Virus record (IMG/VR): IMGVR_UViG_3300034684_000018
Coordinates: 1 to 43,380 of that record
Length of the DNA stretch: 43,380 nucleotides
Strand: one strand, 5' to 3'
From: a virus
Numbering within the stretch: position 1 is the stretch's first letter; the number at the start of each line of letters is the position of its first letter. Below the pieces are notes generated by a model. It saw only the letters and a list, made by a program, of their open reading frames with translations. It was not told the origin of the DNA and ran no database searches. This document shows positions 868 through 43,380 of this stretch, piece by piece. The position numbers and the translations under genes are program-made.

Positions 868-2646
868 ATGGGTAGTTTTAATAGTACAATTATTACTGCA
901 AAAGGCCATGCACTAATGGCAAAAGTTGCTTCAGGTGCAAGTATGCAATTCACAAGAATTCGTACTTCAGATTATCAATATCCTGCGGGAACAAATTTTG
1001 AAGGATTAACAAGCTTATCAAGTGTAAAACAAACAACCCTTGTTTCAGGTGTTTCAAGAATTAATGATGTTGCGGTAAAAGTAAGTGGTGCTTTTACCAA
1101 TGCAGAACTTTCAACAGGGTATTATTTAAGGAATATCGGTTTATATGCTATTGACCCACAAGAAGGTGAAATCCTTTATTCTATCACAACAGCAATTCAA
1201 CCTGATTGGATTCCCCCAAACAGTGGAATTAGTGCTTCAAGCATCTTAATTGACTTGATAACAGTTGTTTCAAATGCTTCCAATGTTTCTGTTGATGTTG
1301 ACCCAAATGCAACTGCAACAGTATCACAAATTCAAGCCTTGGAATCTAAAATTGCTGATGTAAAGGGCTTTGTTGGCTACAATGAAAATGATGTTTATGG
1401 TGTGGAAGTTGATTTTGAAAATAAGACTTTTACCAGGCTTGCTGGCGCAATTAATAAACTTCCTGGGGTTGATTTTAATGGAATCAATGCCTTTGGTGGA
1501 AGAAAAAGATGCAGCTTGACTGATGATGGAAAAGTTCTTGCTTATTATGGTGAACCAGGATACAGTGAAACTGGTGCAACAACAGTTGAAATTACAAAGA
1601 ATTCAGTAACTTATCCAGTTGGAACAAAGGTTCAGTGCATGGTGGAACAGCCAAAATTCTATTATAAAGTTGTTCCAATTAAACTTTCACCAATTACTGA
1701 TGGTATTGGCTATCATTTAAGAAAAGCAAGATATTATGTTTCTGATTATCCAAAACCAGGATTCAAGATTCACCCTGCGTTTGTCAGAAACGGTGTTGAA
1801 AAATCTAAAATTTATCTTCCCGCTTATGAAGCTTCAATCTTTGATGTTTCAGCAAATGCTTATTTATTTGCTGATGAACAGGTTGCAGACTTCACAGTTG
1901 GAACAGGTGATAAACTTTGTTCGATTGCCAATGCAAAACCAGCAAGCGGTTTGACACAAAACTTGACCAGGGCAAATATGAGAAAGCTTGCAAATAACAG
2001 GGGTGCTGGATGGCAACAGAAAGATGTTTTATGTGTTTCAGCAACTCAAATGCTATTTATGATTGAATATGCGGCTTTGAACATGCAAACAGCCATTGGT
2101 GCAGGTGTTACCAATAAAGTTGATGATGCTGCATCAAACATGGCTGAACTTACTGGTGCAACAGCAAACCTTGGTAATGCTTCAGGTGCGGTTACAAATA
2201 CAAATGGTTGGACTGTTATTTCTTACAGAGGTGAAGAAAACTTCTTCGGTAACAATTGGAAGTGGGTTGACGGTTTGAATATAGAATGTAACAACCTGCA
2301 TTATGCTTGGTATGCTGACAACAGCTTTGCGGATGATATAAAAACAGCACCTTACAAAAATGCAGGTTTTACTTTGGCAAAGGCAAATGGTTATGTTTCA
2401 GCCTTTGGTTGGTCAGAAACTTGTGATTTCTTGTTCTTACCTACTGAAGTGCTTGGAACTTCTGCTTTACCTGTTGGGGATTACTTCTATCAAAATGCAG
2501 CTTATGGAGGTTTCTTGGTCGCTCGATTGGGCGGTGATTGGAATAGTGGCTCGGGCGCTGGTGGTTTCTATTGGAATGTGGGTAATGCTTCTTCTCTTCG
2601 GACTCGGGATATCGGCGGCGGGGCGGTGTATGTTCCAGCGGCTTGA
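868..2646 (+). CDS. Tail fibre / receptor-binding protein, DGR target
   Basis: This protein has 592 residues. Residues 1-150 (MGSFNSTIITAKGHALMAKV, then GYYLRNIGLYAIDP) resemble the tail-collar fibre N-terminal domain that anchors phage fibres to the baseplate. A short helical linker (about 155-170) follows. The C-terminal 400 residues are rich in Gly, Trp, Asn and Tyr and end in a C-type-lectin/FGE-like fold typical of DGR targets (WADNS, FGWSETCDFLFLP, GGFLVARLGGDWNSG, GGFYWNVGNASS). Residues 548-588 are the variable repeat. Mutagenic homing into them would retarget adsorption. The ribosome site is GAAAGGTGGAAAG. Several shorter open frames inside the gene are shadows. The protein probably binds the host surface (family knowledge plus the adjacent template and reverse transcriptase). 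Confidence 0.9.
   Translation: MGSFNSTIITAKGHALMAKVASGASMQFTRIRTSDYQYPAGTNFEGLTSLSSVKQTTLVSGVSRINDVAVKVSGAFTNAELSTGYYLRNIGLYAIDPQEGEILYSITTAIQPDWIPPNSGISASSILIDLITVVSNASNVSVDVDPNATATVSQIQALESKIADVKGFVGYNENDVYGVEVDFENKTFTRLAGAINKLPGVDFNGINAFGGRKRCSLTDDGKVLAYYGEPGYSETGATTVEITKNSVTYPVGTKVQCMVEQPKFYYKVVPIKLSPITDGIGYHLRKARYYVSDYPKPGFKIHPAFVRNGVEKSKIYLPAYEASIFDVSANAYLFADEQVADFTVGTGDKLCSIANAKPASGLTQNLTRANMRKLANNRGAGWQQKDVLCVSATQMLFMIEYAALNMQTAIGAGVTNKVDDAASNMAELTGATANLGNASGAVTNTNGWTVISYRGEENFFGNNWKWVDGLNIECNNLHYAWYADNSFADDIKTAPYKNAGFTLAKANGYVSAFGWSETCDFLFLPTEVLGTSALPVGDYFYQNAAYGGFLVARLGGDWNSGSGAGGFYWNVGNASSLRTRDIGGGAVYVPAA
2509..2632 (+). repeat. DGR variable repeat (VR)
   Basis: This 124-bp stretch at the 3' end of the fibre gene aligns without gaps to 2717-2840 at a constant offset of 208 bp. 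By hand I count 24 mismatches, every one opposite an adenine of the downstream copy (20 A to G, 2 A to C, 2 A to T) and none at a template G, C or T. It encodes fibre residues 548-588. The template-to-variable changes include Asn to Asp, Ser, Gly, Leu, Thr or Tyr, Ser to Gly, Thr to Ala, Gln to Arg and Arg to Gly. Homology stops abruptly on both sides. Confidence 0.95.
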
Positions 2647-2993
2647 TGAAGTAATTTAAAACTCAATATACGGGCAAACAGATTATGCAATATGGTTAAA
2701 CAAAAGAAGTTTCACCAGTTTCTTAGTCACTCAATTAGGCAGTAATTGGAATAATGGCTCGAACACTGGTAGTTTCTATTGGAATGTGAATAATGCTTCT
2801 TCTAATCGGAATCGGAATATCAGCAGCAGGGCAGTAAATGCACTTAAACAAAAAAACCCTGTTAAAATCATGTTTGCCCTGCCTCTTGGCAAAACATAAA
2901 AATTATCTAAACCTGTATTGGTAGGTTTGAAAATTAACTTTCAAAACCGTTTGAAGATTCGGGGTTAGTGCATACAACAATGAGGGGTAATCT
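2647..2993 (+). ncRNA. Non-coding DGR spacer, probable template RNA with hairpins
   Basis: This is the 347-base gap between fibre and reverse transcriptase. It has no credible gene and holds TR plus three inverted repeats downstream of it. TGTTTGCC (2871-2878) pairs with GGCAAAACA (2888-2896) with one bulge. AAACCT (2909-2914) pairs with AGGTTT (2923-2928). TTTGAAA (2926-2932) pairs with TTTCAAA (2939-2945). The second and third share bases and so exclude each other. In studied DGRs the RNA 3' of TR primes and guides reverse transcription, so this part is a candidate for that role (inference). No T-run terminator is seen here. Confidence 0.55.
2717..2840 (+). repeat. DGR template repeat (TR)
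   Basis: This is the non-coding donor copy for the variable repeat. It lies 71 bp after the fibre stop, in the same orientation, and 153 bp before the reverse transcriptase. It holds about 38 adenines, many in AAT/AAC or AGC/AGT triplets in the frame corresponding to the fibre, so adenine mutagenesis hits the first two codon positions and avoids most stops. In established DGRs this region is transcribed and copied with adenine-specific errors into cDNA that replaces VR. Confidence 0.94.
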
Positions 2994-4052
2994 ATGAAAA
3001 GATATGGTAATTTATACAGCAAAATTTATGATATGAATAATTTAAAATTTGCCCACAGAAACGCAAGAAAAGGGAAGGGATGGTATAAAGAAGTAAAAAT
3101 GGTTGATGCAGATGAAGAATATTATTTGAAGTTGCTTCAAGAAATGCTCATAAATAAAACATATAAAACTTCTGAATACGAAACCTTTCTTAAAAAGGAG
3201 GGCTTGAAAGAACGTGAAATTTATAAGTTACCATACTTCCCTGATAGGATTTGTCAATGGGCAATTATGCAAGTTATTGAACCTATTCTGATAAATAACT
3301 TTACCAAAGACACCTATTCAGCCATTCCAGGCAGAGGAATTCACCTTGTAAAGAAGCGGCTGATTAAAGCAATTCAAAATGATGTTCCTGGTACACAATA
3401 TACTTTGAAGCTTGATGTAAAAAAATATTATCCAAGTATAAACCATGATATTTTAAAAGCCAAGTATAGGCGAATTTTTAAAGATGATAACCTTCTTTGG
3501 TTACTTGATGAAATTATTGATTCCACACCTAGTGATACAGGAATTCCTATTGGGAACTATCTTTCACAGTACAGCGGTAATTTTTATCTTTCATCTTTTG
3601 ACCACTGGATTAAAGAAGTCAAAAAGGTGAAGTATTATTTTAGGTATATGGATGACATTGTTATCTTTGGAAGAACCAAAGAAGAACTGCATCAACTAAA
3701 ACATGATATTGAAGAATACTTAATGAATGAACTGAAGTTGACTATTAAGGAAAATTGGCAGGTGTTCCCCACTTTTGTAAGGGGTGTTGATTATGTAGGA
3801 TACAGAACCTTTTTAAACTATTCTCTATTAAGAAAATCAACATGTAAAGCTTTCAAGCGCAAAATGCTTAATATTAGGAAGAAGTGCTTAAATGGTAAAG
3901 GTATGACATTTTCTGAATGGTGTTCAATCAATTCTTATAAGGGATGGTTGATGTGGTGTGATAGTTATAGGCTTACTGAAAAATATATTGCACCAATTCA
4001 GTCTTTTGCAGATGATTACTATAAACATAAAATTAAAAGAAAGGTGGATTAA
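2994..4052 (+). CDS. DGR-type reverse transcriptase
   Basis: This 352-residue protein is the right size for a DGR reverse transcriptase. Motif A is LKLDVKKYYPSI (around residues 141-152). The DGR-specific motif 4 is GIPIGNYLSQ, with I186, G187, S191 and Q192 matching the (I/V/L)GxxxSQ signature. The catalytic YMDD is at residues 218-221 in FRYMDDIVIF, and VDYVGY lies downstream. There is no maturase, integrase or endonuclease domain, so it is not a group II intron or retrotransposon enzyme. It is expected to copy the TR RNA with errors at adenines and feed replacement of VR. The ribosome site GAGGGG lies 8 bases before ATG. It is followed at once (2 bases) by 4055. Confidence 0.94.
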   Translation: MKRYGNLYSKIYDMNNLKFAHRNARKGKGWYKEVKMVDADEEYYLKLLQEMLINKTYKTSEYETFLKKEGLKEREIYKLPYFPDRICQWAIMQVIEPILINNFTKDTYSAIPGRGIHLVKKRLIKAIQNDVPGTQYTLKLDVKKYYPSINHDILKAKYRRIFKDDNLLWLLDEIIDSTPSDTGIPIGNYLSQYSGNFYLSSFDHWIKEVKKVKYYFRYMDDIVIFGRTKEELHQLKHDIEEYLMNELKLTIKENWQVFPTFVRGVDYVGYRTFLNYSLLRKSTCKAFKRKMLNIRKKCLNGKGMTFSEWCSINSYKGWLMWCDSYRLTEKYIAPIQSFADDYYKHKIKRKVD

Positions 4053-4054
4053 AA

Positions 4055-4321
4055 ATGGTCAATTATGGAACTGTAAAAAGTACAGTAAAACCAAGTGAAC
4101 TTGTAATTGATGAATTCAATGTTTGGGTTCATACCAATATCATTGAAGTAAGTGAAAATATTGGTGGAGAAAATGAATTTATTGGCTTCCAATTTGATTG
4201 TGTTCAGTATGGTAAAGATGAATATATTAAGTTGATGTCAAAAAAGAATCAAAGCTTGGAACAGCAAATAACAGATTCACAACTTGCCCTGGTTGAATTA
4301 TATGAGAGGATGGTGGTATAA
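4055..4321 (+). CDS. Small tail-end protein of unknown function
   Basis: This 88-residue protein has a good ribosome site (GAAAGGTGG). The N-terminal 60 residues (KPSELVIDEFNVWVHTNI, EFIGFQFDCVQYGKDEY) look like a compact alpha/beta fold. The last 25 (NQSLEQQITDSQLALVELYE) look like a coiled coil. Small proteins of this shape are common between the fibre and holin genes of PBSX-like phages of Bacillota. It is too short and of the wrong composition to be a convincing Avd accessory protein of the DGR. It lies 2 bases after the reverse transcriptase and its TAA directly abuts the ATG of 4322. The function is not recognised. Confidence 0.7.
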   Translation: MVNYGTVKSTVKPSELVIDEFNVWVHTNIIEVSENIGGENEFIGFQFDCVQYGKDEYIKLMSKKNQSLEQQITDSQLALVELYERMVV

Positions 4322-21211: not shown

Positions 21212-21530
21212 TGAATATCAAAAGGCTGCATTAAGAACAGCTTCAAAGAATGGGTCTTATGAATTAATTTTAAATGGGGTTTTAGGTCTTTCAGGTGAAA
21301 CTGGTGAAGTTGCTGATCATGTAAAGAAATATTTATTCCAGGGTCACAACTTAAACAAACATCATCTTGCAGAAGAATTGGGTGATATATGTTGGTATTT
21401 AGCAATCACAGCAGAAGGTTTGGGTTATGACCTAGGTGCAATTATGCAGATGAATATTGATAAGTTAATGAAAAGATACCCCAATGGATTTGAGAAGGAA
21501 AGGTCACTACACAGAAAGGATGATGAATAA
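21201..21530 (+). CDS. MazG-like nucleotide pyrophosphohydrolase
   Basis: This 109-residue protein carries the all-alpha NTP-PPase motifs GLSGETGEVADHVKKYLFQG (ExxE with downstream D) and LAEELGDICWYLAI (EExxD), the metal site of MazG-type enzymes. It hydrolyses NTPs or dNTPs to monophosphates and pyrophosphate. One copy of the domain is present, as in phage enzymes. Its stop overlaps the thyX start (TAATG), so dUTP or dNTP clean-up may be coupled to dTMP synthesis. In some phages MazG also lowers the host alarmone response (family knowledge). Confidence 0.9.
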   Translation: MNANEYQKAALRTASKNGSYELILNGVLGLSGETGEVADHVKKYLFQGHNLNKHHLAEELGDICWYLAITAEGLGYDLGAIMQMNIDKLMKRYPNGFEKERSLHRKDDE

Positions 21531-22153
21531 TGAAAGCAATCAAAGCAGGTTTTGAAATTATTGATGAATTGAATGGTTCTGAAATATTGAAGAAAATTGA
21601 ACTTTGTGGAAGGGTTTGCTATAAATCAGAAAACAAAATCAAAGAAGGATCTGCTGAAAAGTTTGTTGCTGCAATAATAAGAAATGGTCATGAATCGGTA
21701 ATTGAACATGTATCTTTCACAGTCAAGTTTATTGTTGACAGGGGTGTAAGTCATGAAATGGTAAGACATAGACTTGCTTCATATAGTCAGGAAAGCACCA
21801 GGTATTGTAATTACAGTAAGGATGATTTTCAATCTGAAATCACTTTTATTGAACCATATTATTTGGCAGAAGGTTCACCAGGTTGGATGGAATGGATGCT
21901 TGCAATGGAAGCTGCTGAAAAGGCTTATTTCAATTTATTAAACATAGGTCATTCACCACAGGAAGCAAGGGCAGTTCTTCCAAACAGCTTGAAAACAGAA
22001 GTAATGATGACAGCTAATTTAAGAGAGTGGAGGCACTTCTTAAAAGTTAGAACTTCAAAGGCAGCACATCCACAAATAAGAGAAGTTGCAATTCCATTGC
22101 TTCATGAATTACAAAGACTTATTCCAGTGGTCTTTGATGATATAACTTTTTAG
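21530..22153 (+). CDS. thyX: FAD-dependent thymidylate synthase ThyX
   Basis: This 207-residue enzyme makes dTMP from dUMP using methylene-tetrahydrofolate, NADPH and FAD. The ThyX signature RHRxxSxxxxSxRY is seen as RHRLASYSQESTRY, with R79, H80 and R81. HESVIEHVSFTVKFIVDRG lies upstream, and the NLREWRHFLKVRTSKAAHPQ segment near the C-terminus completes the family pattern. Flanking MazG-like and DUF1599-like genes show a nucleotide module. The phage can thus supply dTMP for its AT-rich genome. Confidence 0.97.
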   Translation: MKAIKAGFEIIDELNGSEILKKIELCGRVCYKSENKIKEGSAEKFVAAIIRNGHESVIEHVSFTVKFIVDRGVSHEMVRHRLASYSQESTRYCNYSKDDFQSEITFIEPYYLAEGSPGWMEWMLAMEAAEKAYFNLLNIGHSPQEARAVLPNSLKTEVMMTANLREWRHFLKVRTSKAAHPQIREVAIPLLHELQRLIPVVFDDITF

Positions 22154-42202: not shown

Positions 42203-42603
42203 TTCCAGGAATGCATGGTTTTTTAAATGAAGATTTTGAAATTGAACAACAACCAAGTAGAACTTACAAAATGTATCTTGAACAAGAAGTAATCAATGGT
42301 TTTACTGATGAATTAGATGCAATGAAACAAACAATATACATGATCCTGAATACTGAAAGGTATCAGTATATTATATATTCCTGGAATTATGGAATTGAAT
42401 TAGCTGATTTGTTCGGTGAACCAGTCACTTATGTATGCCCTGAATTAGAAAGAAGAATTACAGAAGCATTGACCCAAGATGAAAGGATCTTGTCGGTTGA
42501 TGCTTTTTCATTTGATTTAAGTGTAAAAGGAAAGGTTCATGTTACCTTTATAGTACACACAATCTTTGGTGAAGTTGAAGCAGAAAAGGTGGTGAATATT
42601 TGA
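42199..42603 (+). CDS. XkdS-like baseplate protein (DUF2634, gp25-related)
   Basis: This 134-residue protein begins MIPGMHGFLNEDFEIEQQPS. It contains TYKMYLEQEVINGFTDELDA, MKQTIYMILNTERYQYIIYS, and WNYGIELADLFGEPVTYVCP with ELERRITEALTQDERILSVD, the DUF2634 (XkdS) pattern related to the gp25 wedge protein. It nucleates sheath assembly at the baseplate. The overlap with the baseplate-J start (TGATG) shows coupling. Confidence 0.9.
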   Translation: MIPGMHGFLNEDFEIEQQPSRTYKMYLEQEVINGFTDELDAMKQTIYMILNTERYQYIIYSWNYGIELADLFGEPVTYVCPELERRITEALTQDERILSVDAFSFDLSVKGKVHVTFIVHTIFGEVEAEKVVNI

Positions 42604-43380
42604 TGTATGAAGATATAACATTTGAAGTCATTCTTCAAAGAATGCTTGACAGAGTACCTGATAATTTAGATAAAAGGGAAAGTTCACCAATCTATAATGC
42701 ACTTGCACCTGCTGCTGTTGAACTTCAATTAATGTATATTGAATTTGACATTATTCTTCAAGAAACCTTTGGTGATACAGCTTCAAGGGAATATTTAATC
42801 AGAAGGGCAGCAGAAAGGGGAATTCACCCATACCCTTCAACTTATGCAATATTAAAAGGTGAATTCACACCAACTTCAATTGATATTCCTATTGGTTCAA
42901 GGTTCAGCTTACATGATTTGAACTATTATGTAAAAGAAAAAATTGAAGATGGTGTTTACCAGGTCGAATGTGAAGAACCAGGTGTAAAAGGAAATCAATA
43001 TTTTGGTGATTTAATTCCAATTGAATATATTGATGGACTTGAAACAGCAAAACTGACAGAAATTCTTATTCCTGGTGAAGATGAAGAAGAAACGGAAGCT
43101 TTAAGAAAAAGATATTTTGATACCTTCAATACAAAACCTTATGGTGGAAACAAGCAGGATTATATTCAAAAAACCAATGCCATTGTCGGTGTTGGTGCAA
43201 CTAAAGTAACACCTGTTTGGAATGGCGGTGGGACAGTAAAACTTACAATTTTGAATTCAGAATTTAACAAAGCAAGTTCAACATTAATTGAAACTGTTCA
43301 GAATGAAATTGACCCTGTTGGTTATTCAGGGAAAGGTTATGGAATTGCACCAATAGGTCATATCGTAACAGTTGATACAG
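42603..43380 (+). CDS. Baseplate J-like protein (XkdT), N-terminal part (cut by window end)
   Basis: The ATG at 42603 overlaps the XkdS stop. The frame stays open for 259 residues to the window end. It begins MYEDITFEVILQRMLDRVPD. It contains QLMYIEFDIILQETFGDTAS, REYLIRRAAERGIHPYPSTY, and ALRKRYFDTFNTKPYGGNKQ with DYIQKTNAIVGVGATKVTPV, the baseplate-J/XkdT pattern. It forms the baseplate wedge arm. The C-terminal part at 2-148 probably belongs to the same gene, but direct joining of the two window ends gives a stop, so about 0.1 kb seems missing. Confidence 0.92.
   Translation, partial: MYEDITFEVILQRMLDRVPDNLDKRESSPIYNALAPAAVELQLMYIEFDIILQETFGDTASREYLIRRAAERGIHPYPSTYAILKGEFTPTSIDIPIGSRFSLHDLNYYVKEKIEDGVYQVECEEPGVKGNQYFGDLIPIEYIDGLETAKLTEILIPGEDEEETEALRKRYFDTFNTKPYGGNKQDYIQKTNAIVGVGATKVTPVWNGGGTVKLTILNSEFNKASSTLIETVQNEIDPVGYSGKGYGIAPIGHIVTVDT

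What the first reader, a model, noticed from the sequence alone, without database searches (positions are those of the whole stretch)
2509..4052. A complete-looking diversity-generating retroelement retargets the tail fibre
Seen: a 124-bp copy (2717-2840) lies 208 bp downstream of the 3' end of the fibre gene (2509-2632). All 24 differences I count fall at template adenines and there are no indels. The downstream reverse transcriptase has YMDD and the DGR-type IGxxxSQ motif. Known: these are the defining signs of DGRs such as that of Bordetella phage BPP-1. Inference: this phage can diversify up to about 20 residues of its receptor-binding lectin-like domain during growth.
Basis: partly seen in the sequence, partly recalled or inferred. 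Interest (0 to 1): 0.88.

Follow-up and report, generated by a model that had tools for sequence, protein, structure and literature searches.

The report
Phage self-editing tail-fibre retroelement
A temperate phage carries a genuine diversity-generating retroelement that rewrites the tip of its tail fibre, and comparison with about 150 related elements shows that its copying enzyme does not mutate every template A at random: an A followed by G becomes G almost every time, while most other As vary freely.

Summary
VR 2509-2632 and TR 2717-2840 differ at 24 of 124 positions, all at TR adenines, with no indels (p = 4e-16). The RT (2994-4052) groups with DGR enzymes, and the target's predicted fold matches known DGR variable proteins (TaqVP, Mtd). 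It is a real DGR of the avd-less target-VR-TR-RT type. Relatives with the same template but different VRs show that the family is active.

Across 71 TR/VR pairs of this RT clade, A before G reads G in 434/439 cases (62/62 at synonymous interior sites; 44/45 where the stretch was demonstrably recopied). BPP-1 relatives give 13/28 and the Arawn clade 8/24. So about 13 codons are randomised, not 20, and some conserved Ala/Gly of the fold arise by near-fixed miscoding. (2) A covarying long-range RNA helix (2672-2680 with 2871-2879) brackets the TR. (3) The spacer is Rfam RT-17, an RNA not labelled as a DGR part. (4) The BPP-1-type hairpin after the VR is absent, and no Avd gene was found near the cassette. 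(5) In three relatives the TR itself is partly overwritten.

The DGR is ordinary in kind; I found no description of the near-deterministic A-to-G rule.

The parts
868..2646 (+). Target gene: tail fibre protein of 592 aa, C-terminal lectin-like domain
   Evidence: phrog_5302 tail protein E 5e-149; AlphaFold model pLDDT 88.8; best PDB folds TaqVP 5vf4 E 7e-10 and Mtd 1yu4 E 1e-4
2509..2632 (+). Variable repeat (VR), codons 548-588
   Evidence: 24/24 differences at TR adenines; 13 codons predicted to vary: 553, 557, 559, 560, 563, 568, 570, 572, 573, 577, 579, 581, 582
2614..2632 (+). IMH-like 3' end of VR (GGCGGCGGGGCGGTGTATG), fixed, not diversified
   Evidence: TGTATG against TAAATG is constant in most of the family; in L006 and L008 overwriting of the TR stops 8-20 bases short of its 3' end
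2672..2680 (+). 5' arm of the long-range helix that brackets the TR (GGGCAAACA)
   Evidence: pairs with 2871-2879; covariation in 33 distinct loci
2717..2840 (+). Template repeat (TR)
2822..2840 (+). IMH*-like 3' end of TR (AGCAGCAGGGCAGTAAATG)
   Evidence: counterpart of 2614-2632
2871..2879 (+). 3' arm of the long-range helix (TGTTTGCCC)
2875..2977 (+). Spacer RNA between TR and RT, Rfam RT-17 (RF03020)
   Evidence: 52.7 bits, gathering cut-off 40.4; present at the same place in relatives; covarying helices
2994..4052 (+). DGR reverse transcriptase, 352 aa
   Evidence: phrog_1423 E 2e-124; best PDB relative 8ub7 E 4e-32; RT tree; bRT R74 and I181 equivalents R74 and I186 conserved

Best explanation
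This is an avd-less diversity-generating retroelement in the tail module of a temperate phage with a contractile tail. The TR and its flanks are transcribed and fold with the spacer (the RT-17 element plus a long-range helix that clamps the two ends of the TR). The RT copies the TR into cDNA with errors only at template adenines. The cDNA replaces the VR at the 3' end of the tail-fibre gene, so the lectin-like tip changes. The errors are set by context: an adenine followed by G (and, in this subclade, by C unless preceded by A) is read as G almost every time, while adenines in AAT/AAC, CAA, TAT and ATC codons are randomised. The template therefore encodes about 13 variable residues, plus constant positions that exist only after miscoding. 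Shown: anatomy, adenine specificity, the context rule, diversification within the family, the covarying helix, fold similarity. Inferred: that the RT itself causes the rule, the homing steps, and change of receptor specificity.
For: Repeat statistics. RT family, PDB relative and tree. Fold of the target. Conservation of the TR/VR pair in relatives. Same-TR pairs with different VRs: adenines outside AG/AC differ 178/325, non-adenines 8/925. A before G read as G: 358/361, interior 225/227, interior synonymous 62/62, and 44/45 in recopied stretches. Helix covariation: 81 double changes against 28.4 +/- 4.7 in shuffles. RT-17 spacer.
Against: No sequencing reads were available, so activity of this very copy is not shown; L002 and L003 carry an identical VR. 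No Avd was found near the cassette and no hairpin follows the VR, unlike BPP-1. The cause of the context rule (RT or RNA editing) cannot be separated by sequence comparison.
Confidence: 0.87

Rival explanations
1. Ordinary DGR with context-free random adenine mutagenesis; the constant Gs in the VRs are kept by selection on the lectin fold.
For: Several of the constant positions are conserved Gly/Ala in the target family. [quoted passage not shown]
Against: Interior synonymous A-before-G sites are G in 62/62 (clade A) and 17/18 (clade B). The Arawn clade varies freely at the same GGCAGCAAT motif.
Confidence: 0.06
2. The constant Gs are positions that are never copied: fixed VR/TR differences as in IMH/IMH*, including inherited ones.
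For: It holds for the last 8-20 bases.
Against: 225/227 interior AG sites lie between variable codons, and in same-TR pairs AG sites flanked by changed sites, hence recopied, are G in both in 44/45.
Confidence: 0.03
3. The A-to-G rule comes from adenosine-to-inosine editing of the TR RNA before copying, not from the RT.
For: The outcome at AG is only G. A deaminase acting on AG would give the same pattern. Not excluded here.
Against: The rule follows the RT clade across phages of Clostridia, crAss-like phages and Bacteroidota genomes. It depends on the base that the RT has just copied, which is also the stronger neighbour for BPP-1 bRT (PMC12875486). No deaminase gene is part of the cassette.
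Confidence: 0.1
4. The RT belongs to a retron, group II intron or defence system, and the repeat is incidental.
For: Weak cross-hits to group II, Drt and retron profiles.
Against: All are far below their curated cut-offs. Repeat statistics, conservation of the TR/VR pair, and the RT tree.
Confidence: 0.01

Closest known systems
crAss-like phage DGRs (crAssphage LMMB, PMC7290462; cr55_1)
   Same: Order target-VR-TR-RT, no avd, IMH/IMH* at the repeat ends, tail target. cr55_1 and its relatives share the A-before-G rule: 7/7 in cr55_1 and 97% of 179 in its relatives.
   Different: RT 40-49% identical. A before C is mostly not fixed in the cr55-like clade (34% G against 91% in the window's clade). 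The LMMB paper counts every adenine as random.
Psychrobacillus phage Perkons and the [Eubacterium] eligens plasmid NC_012782 DGRs
   Same: Same RT clade (59% and 55% identity), same tail-target/VR/TR/RT order, mostly the same fixed A>G pattern
   Different: In records of cultured organisms, not annotated as DGRs in these records; useful laboratory models. In Perkons one of 3 AG sites keeps A.
Bordetella phage BPP-1 DGR (mtd-avd-TR-brt)
   Same: Adenine-specific mutagenic transfer from TR to VR, related RT (32% identity), C-type-lectin target, structured spacer RNA between TR and RT
   Different: Here no Avd near the cassette, no hairpin after the VR (3/71 in clade A; present in BPP-1), another spacer family (RT-17 instead of Phage_DGR), and a near-fixed A>G outcome at AG
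Rfam RT-17 RNA (RF03020)
   Same: Window 2875-2977 scores above the gathering cut-off
   Different: The Rfam line seen here does not call it a DGR RNA; here it is the DGR spacer, and its 5' end takes part in a helix that reaches across the TR

Membership tests
Diversity-generating retroelement (general) | TR/VR pair whose differences fall at template adenines | tested here: met
   24/24, p = 3.7e-16; same in relatives
Diversity-generating retroelement (general) | RT of the DGR lineage with the IGxxxSQ motif | tested here: met
   IGNYLSQ; groups with DGR RTs, apart from group II intron RTs; best PDB relative 8ub7
Diversity-generating retroelement (general) | VR at the 3' end of a target gene, C-type-lectin fold | tested here: met
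   Foldseek: TaqVP and Mtd are the best hits
Diversity-generating retroelement (general) | Ongoing diversification at template adenines | tested here: met
   In relatives with the same TR and different VRs; not shown for this copy
Diversity-generating retroelement (general) | IMH in VR differing from IMH* in TR | tested here: met
   2614-2632 against 2822-2840; constant through the family; function not tested
BPP-1-type DGR | Avd accessory gene next to the cassette | tested here: not met
   No ORF of 60 aa or more lies between target and RT apart from one overlapping the target 3' end, and the flanking proteins have no Avd-like family hit. Only about 38 of the window's larger ORFs were scanned, so an Avd elsewhere in the genome is not excluded.
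BPP-1-type DGR | Hairpin/cruciform just after the VR | tested here: not met
   3/71 clade-A loci against 7.9 in shuffles; the BPP-1 control is positive
BPP-1-type DGR | GC-only 14-bp element in IMH, identical in TR and VR (PMC3240598) | tested here: not met
   The last 20 bases of VR and TR differ at several A positions and hold no such run
Rfam RT-17 (RF03020) | Score above the gathering cut-off | tested here: met
   52.7 against 40.4 bits
Group II intron, retron or DRT reverse transcriptase | Score above the curated profile cut-off | tested here: not met
   TIGR04416 102 of 300 bits; Drt3a 67 of 200; retron St85 44 of 235

The most novel reading that the evidence does not exclude
In a large clade of DGR reverse transcriptases the error at a template adenine is programmed by the 3' neighbour: AG is recoded to GG with near certainty. 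The phages exploit this. The template carries many AG adenines (6.2 per TR against 0.6 in BPP-1 relatives) that make the cDNA match the VR and mismatch its own template, so that the product homes to the target and spares the TR, and constant fold residues are written by miscoding.
Probability: 0.4. Interest if true: 0.75.

Novelty: new variant of a known kind. Interest (0 to 1): 0.6.

Why it matters
DGRs have been described as choosing substitutions at template adenines essentially at random (PMC3521204, which itself notes selection and codon-use caveats), and repertoire sizes are computed from adenine counts (for example PMC7290462). In this RT lineage, found in temperate phages of Clostridia, crAss-like phages and Bacteroidota genomes, a sizeable share of the adenines is not random at all (11 of 38 in this window). 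That corrects diversity estimates. It gives a clean natural contrast for finding the RT residues that set the error spectrum, and suggests an enzyme that could write fixed and random positions from one template. The covarying helix and the RT-17 assignment help to define the RNA needed to rebuild the system, and two relatives sit in records of cultured organisms.

Tried and rejected
Extra VR copies in the window: none. Diversification visible between near-identical contigs: L002 and L003 have the same VR. Search with the crAssphage LMMB RT: no loci confirmed. The 88-aa ORF after the RT as a DGR accessory: conserved next to the RT in the clade, no relative in the phage collection; its place between the tail-fibre and holin genes suggests a tail-module gene, left open. 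Hairpin after the VR: rejected. Simple slippage on the just-copied base as the sole cause of the context rule: it fits AG but not AC. The TR-bracketing helix in clade B: no signal, but only 7 loci could be tested. Literature for a description of the AG rule: none found in the held library; one 2019 survey reports that about half of replaced adenines become G, without context. A paper on 'RNA control of reverse transcription' in a DGR appears to be cited by held papers but is not held, so priority on a TR-bracketing helix in BPP-1 could not be checked.

Full report
CHECK OF THE OBSERVATION. There are 24 mismatches, all at the 38 TR adenines, no indels, p = 3.7e-16. No third copy exists in the window. 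The RT ORF 2994-4052 has RYMDDI and IGNYLSQ.

WHAT IT IS. The RT matches PHROG 1423 (E 2e-124). Its best relative among solved structures is entry 8ub7, listed only as 'reverse transcriptase', which I take from memory to be the BPP-1 enzyme. In a maximum-likelihood tree it sits among DGR RTs, apart from group II intron RTs (the root is arbitrary, deep forks are weak, and some outgroup branches are long). The equivalents of bRT Arg74 and Ile181, residues that I recall as affecting adenine mutagenesis, are conserved. The target is a tail protein (phrog_5302). Its AlphaFold model (mean pLDDT 88.8) finds TaqVP and Mtd, the classic DGR variable proteins, as its best matches among solved structures. 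The spacer between TR and RT is Rfam RT-17. The same kind of scan assigns the BPP-1 spacer to Phage_DGR and the Bacteroides phage p00 spacer to RT-3, so RT-17 is very likely the spacer RNA of this DGR lineage.

RELATIVES. The 80 viral contigs kept carry the RT at 57-100% identity. A TR/VR pair was recovered in most of them; there are 56 distinct pairs with the window. Further loci came from crAss-like cr55_1, Butyrivibrio phage Arawn, Bacteroides phage p00, Faecalibacterium phage Lagaffe and BPP-1 relatives, and from bacterial genomes. Genome hits closest to the window's RT are Clostridia, Oscillospiraceae and Ruminococcus assemblies.

TWO KINDS OF TEMPLATE ADENINE. Among the 56 pairs of the window's clade, adenines followed by G are G in the VR in 358/361 cases. 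Adenines followed by C after a non-A base are G in 139/153. Adenines in AAT context are A 50%, G 27%, C 15%, T 8%. Three controls follow. First, interior AG sites lying between variable codons are G in 225/227, so this is not an uncopied 3' zone. Second, all 62 interior synonymous ones are G, so it is not selection on the protein. Third, in pairs of elements with the same TR but different VRs, AG sites flanked by changed sites, and therefore recopied, are G in both in 44/45 (clade A) and 22/25 (clade B), while other adenines differ in 177/282 and 364/551. These pairs share members, so they are not all independent. The rule is not universal. With genomes added, the window's clade gives 434/439, clade B 215/224, BPP-1 relatives 13/28 and the Arawn clade 8/24 (Fisher p 8e-17 for clade A against BPP-1 relatives, 9e-19 for A and B together against the Arawn clade). 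For BPP-1 bRT measured in E. coli, average misincorporation at template adenines is 30.65%, strongly context-dependent, with its special effect at AC rather than AG (PMC12875486). In the window, 11 of the 24 differences are of the near-fixed kind and 2 more lie in the fixed homing end. The codons that can really vary are 553, 557, 559, 560, 563, 568, 570, 572, 573, 577, 579, 581 and 582. Conserved residues A552, G583 and G584 stand in the template as Thr and Ser codons and arise by miscoding.

RNA ARCHITECTURE. GGGCAAACA (2672-2680), between the target's stop codon and the TR, is the exact complement of TGTTTGCCC (2871-2879) after the TR. Arms taken by sequence anchors, not by pairing, from 33 distinct clade-A loci show 85.6% paired cells and 81 double changes against 28.4 +/- 4.7 in shuffles, and the signal collapses when the partner is slid by one base. 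The anchors fitted 42 of the 69 distinct clade-A loci examined; several of the others show the same pairing with a variant anchor. The spacer has further covarying pairs. I infer that the long helix holds the two ends of the TR together and may set the limits of copying. A possible pairing at a corresponding place exists in BPP-1. No hairpin follows the VR in this clade, and no Avd gene was found in or near the cassette.

TEMPLATE DAMAGE. In L006 and L008 the TR has itself acquired VR-like, A-poor sequence distinct from the VR, except for its last 8-20 bases and, in L008, its 5' part. In L215 half of the TR is of this kind and the VR has since been rewritten from it. Unless these are assembly errors, cDNA sometimes homes into the template, and the untouched 3' end marks the IMH* boundary.

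MECHANISM, SHOWN AND INFERRED. Shown by sequence: anatomy, adenine specificity, context rule, diversification within the family, helix covariation, fold similarity. Inferred: an RT-level cause (dC inserted opposite A once the neighbouring G has been copied), the homing steps, receptor switching, and the idea that AG adenines mark the cDNA as matching the target rather than the template. Slippage on the just-copied base, as proposed for BPP-1 at AC, would explain AG>GG here but not AC>GC.

SETTING. The window is most of a temperate phage genome with integrase, repressor, terminase, portal, tail sheath, tape measure, baseplate, holin and amidase genes. The DGR lies between the tail fibre and the lysis genes.

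VERDICT. A real DGR, ordinary in kind, belonging to a lineage with a programmed error spectrum that I could not find described.

Noticed in passing
L006:3728-3845, L008:1140-1250, L215:4258-4373: The TR itself carries VR-like, A-poor sequence over part of its length, as if mutagenised cDNA had homed into the template; assembly error is not excluded.
   Followed up: partly
L115, L125, L137, L168: Two VR copies upstream of one TR in clade-B elements, so one template probably serves two target genes or domains.
   Followed up: no
L345 (NC_012782.1:241-9434, [Eubacterium] eligens ATCC 27750 plasmid): A listed plasmid of a cultured gut bacterium carries phage tail, holin and recombinase genes and a DGR of the same clade (RT 55% identity) with the fixed A>G pattern; it looks like a phage-plasmid.
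   Followed up: partly
window 4055-4321: An 88-aa ORF (phrog_18126, unknown function) follows the RT in nearly all relatives of the clade and had no match in the phage collection.
   Followed up: partly
window 42600-43380 and 1-147: A baseplate gene runs off the right end, and a likely C-terminal piece of it (reading frame 2) opens the left end: the record is probably a circularly permuted genome lacking a short piece (frame 2 read by eye).
   Followed up: partly
clade B and Arawn clade TRs (L092-L171, L172-L203): A before T after a non-A base is read as T in about 40% there but about 11% in the window's clade: another lineage-specific bias.
   Followed up: no
window 21530-22153: Thymidylate synthase ThyX-type gene in the early region (Pfam Thy1).
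   Followed up: no
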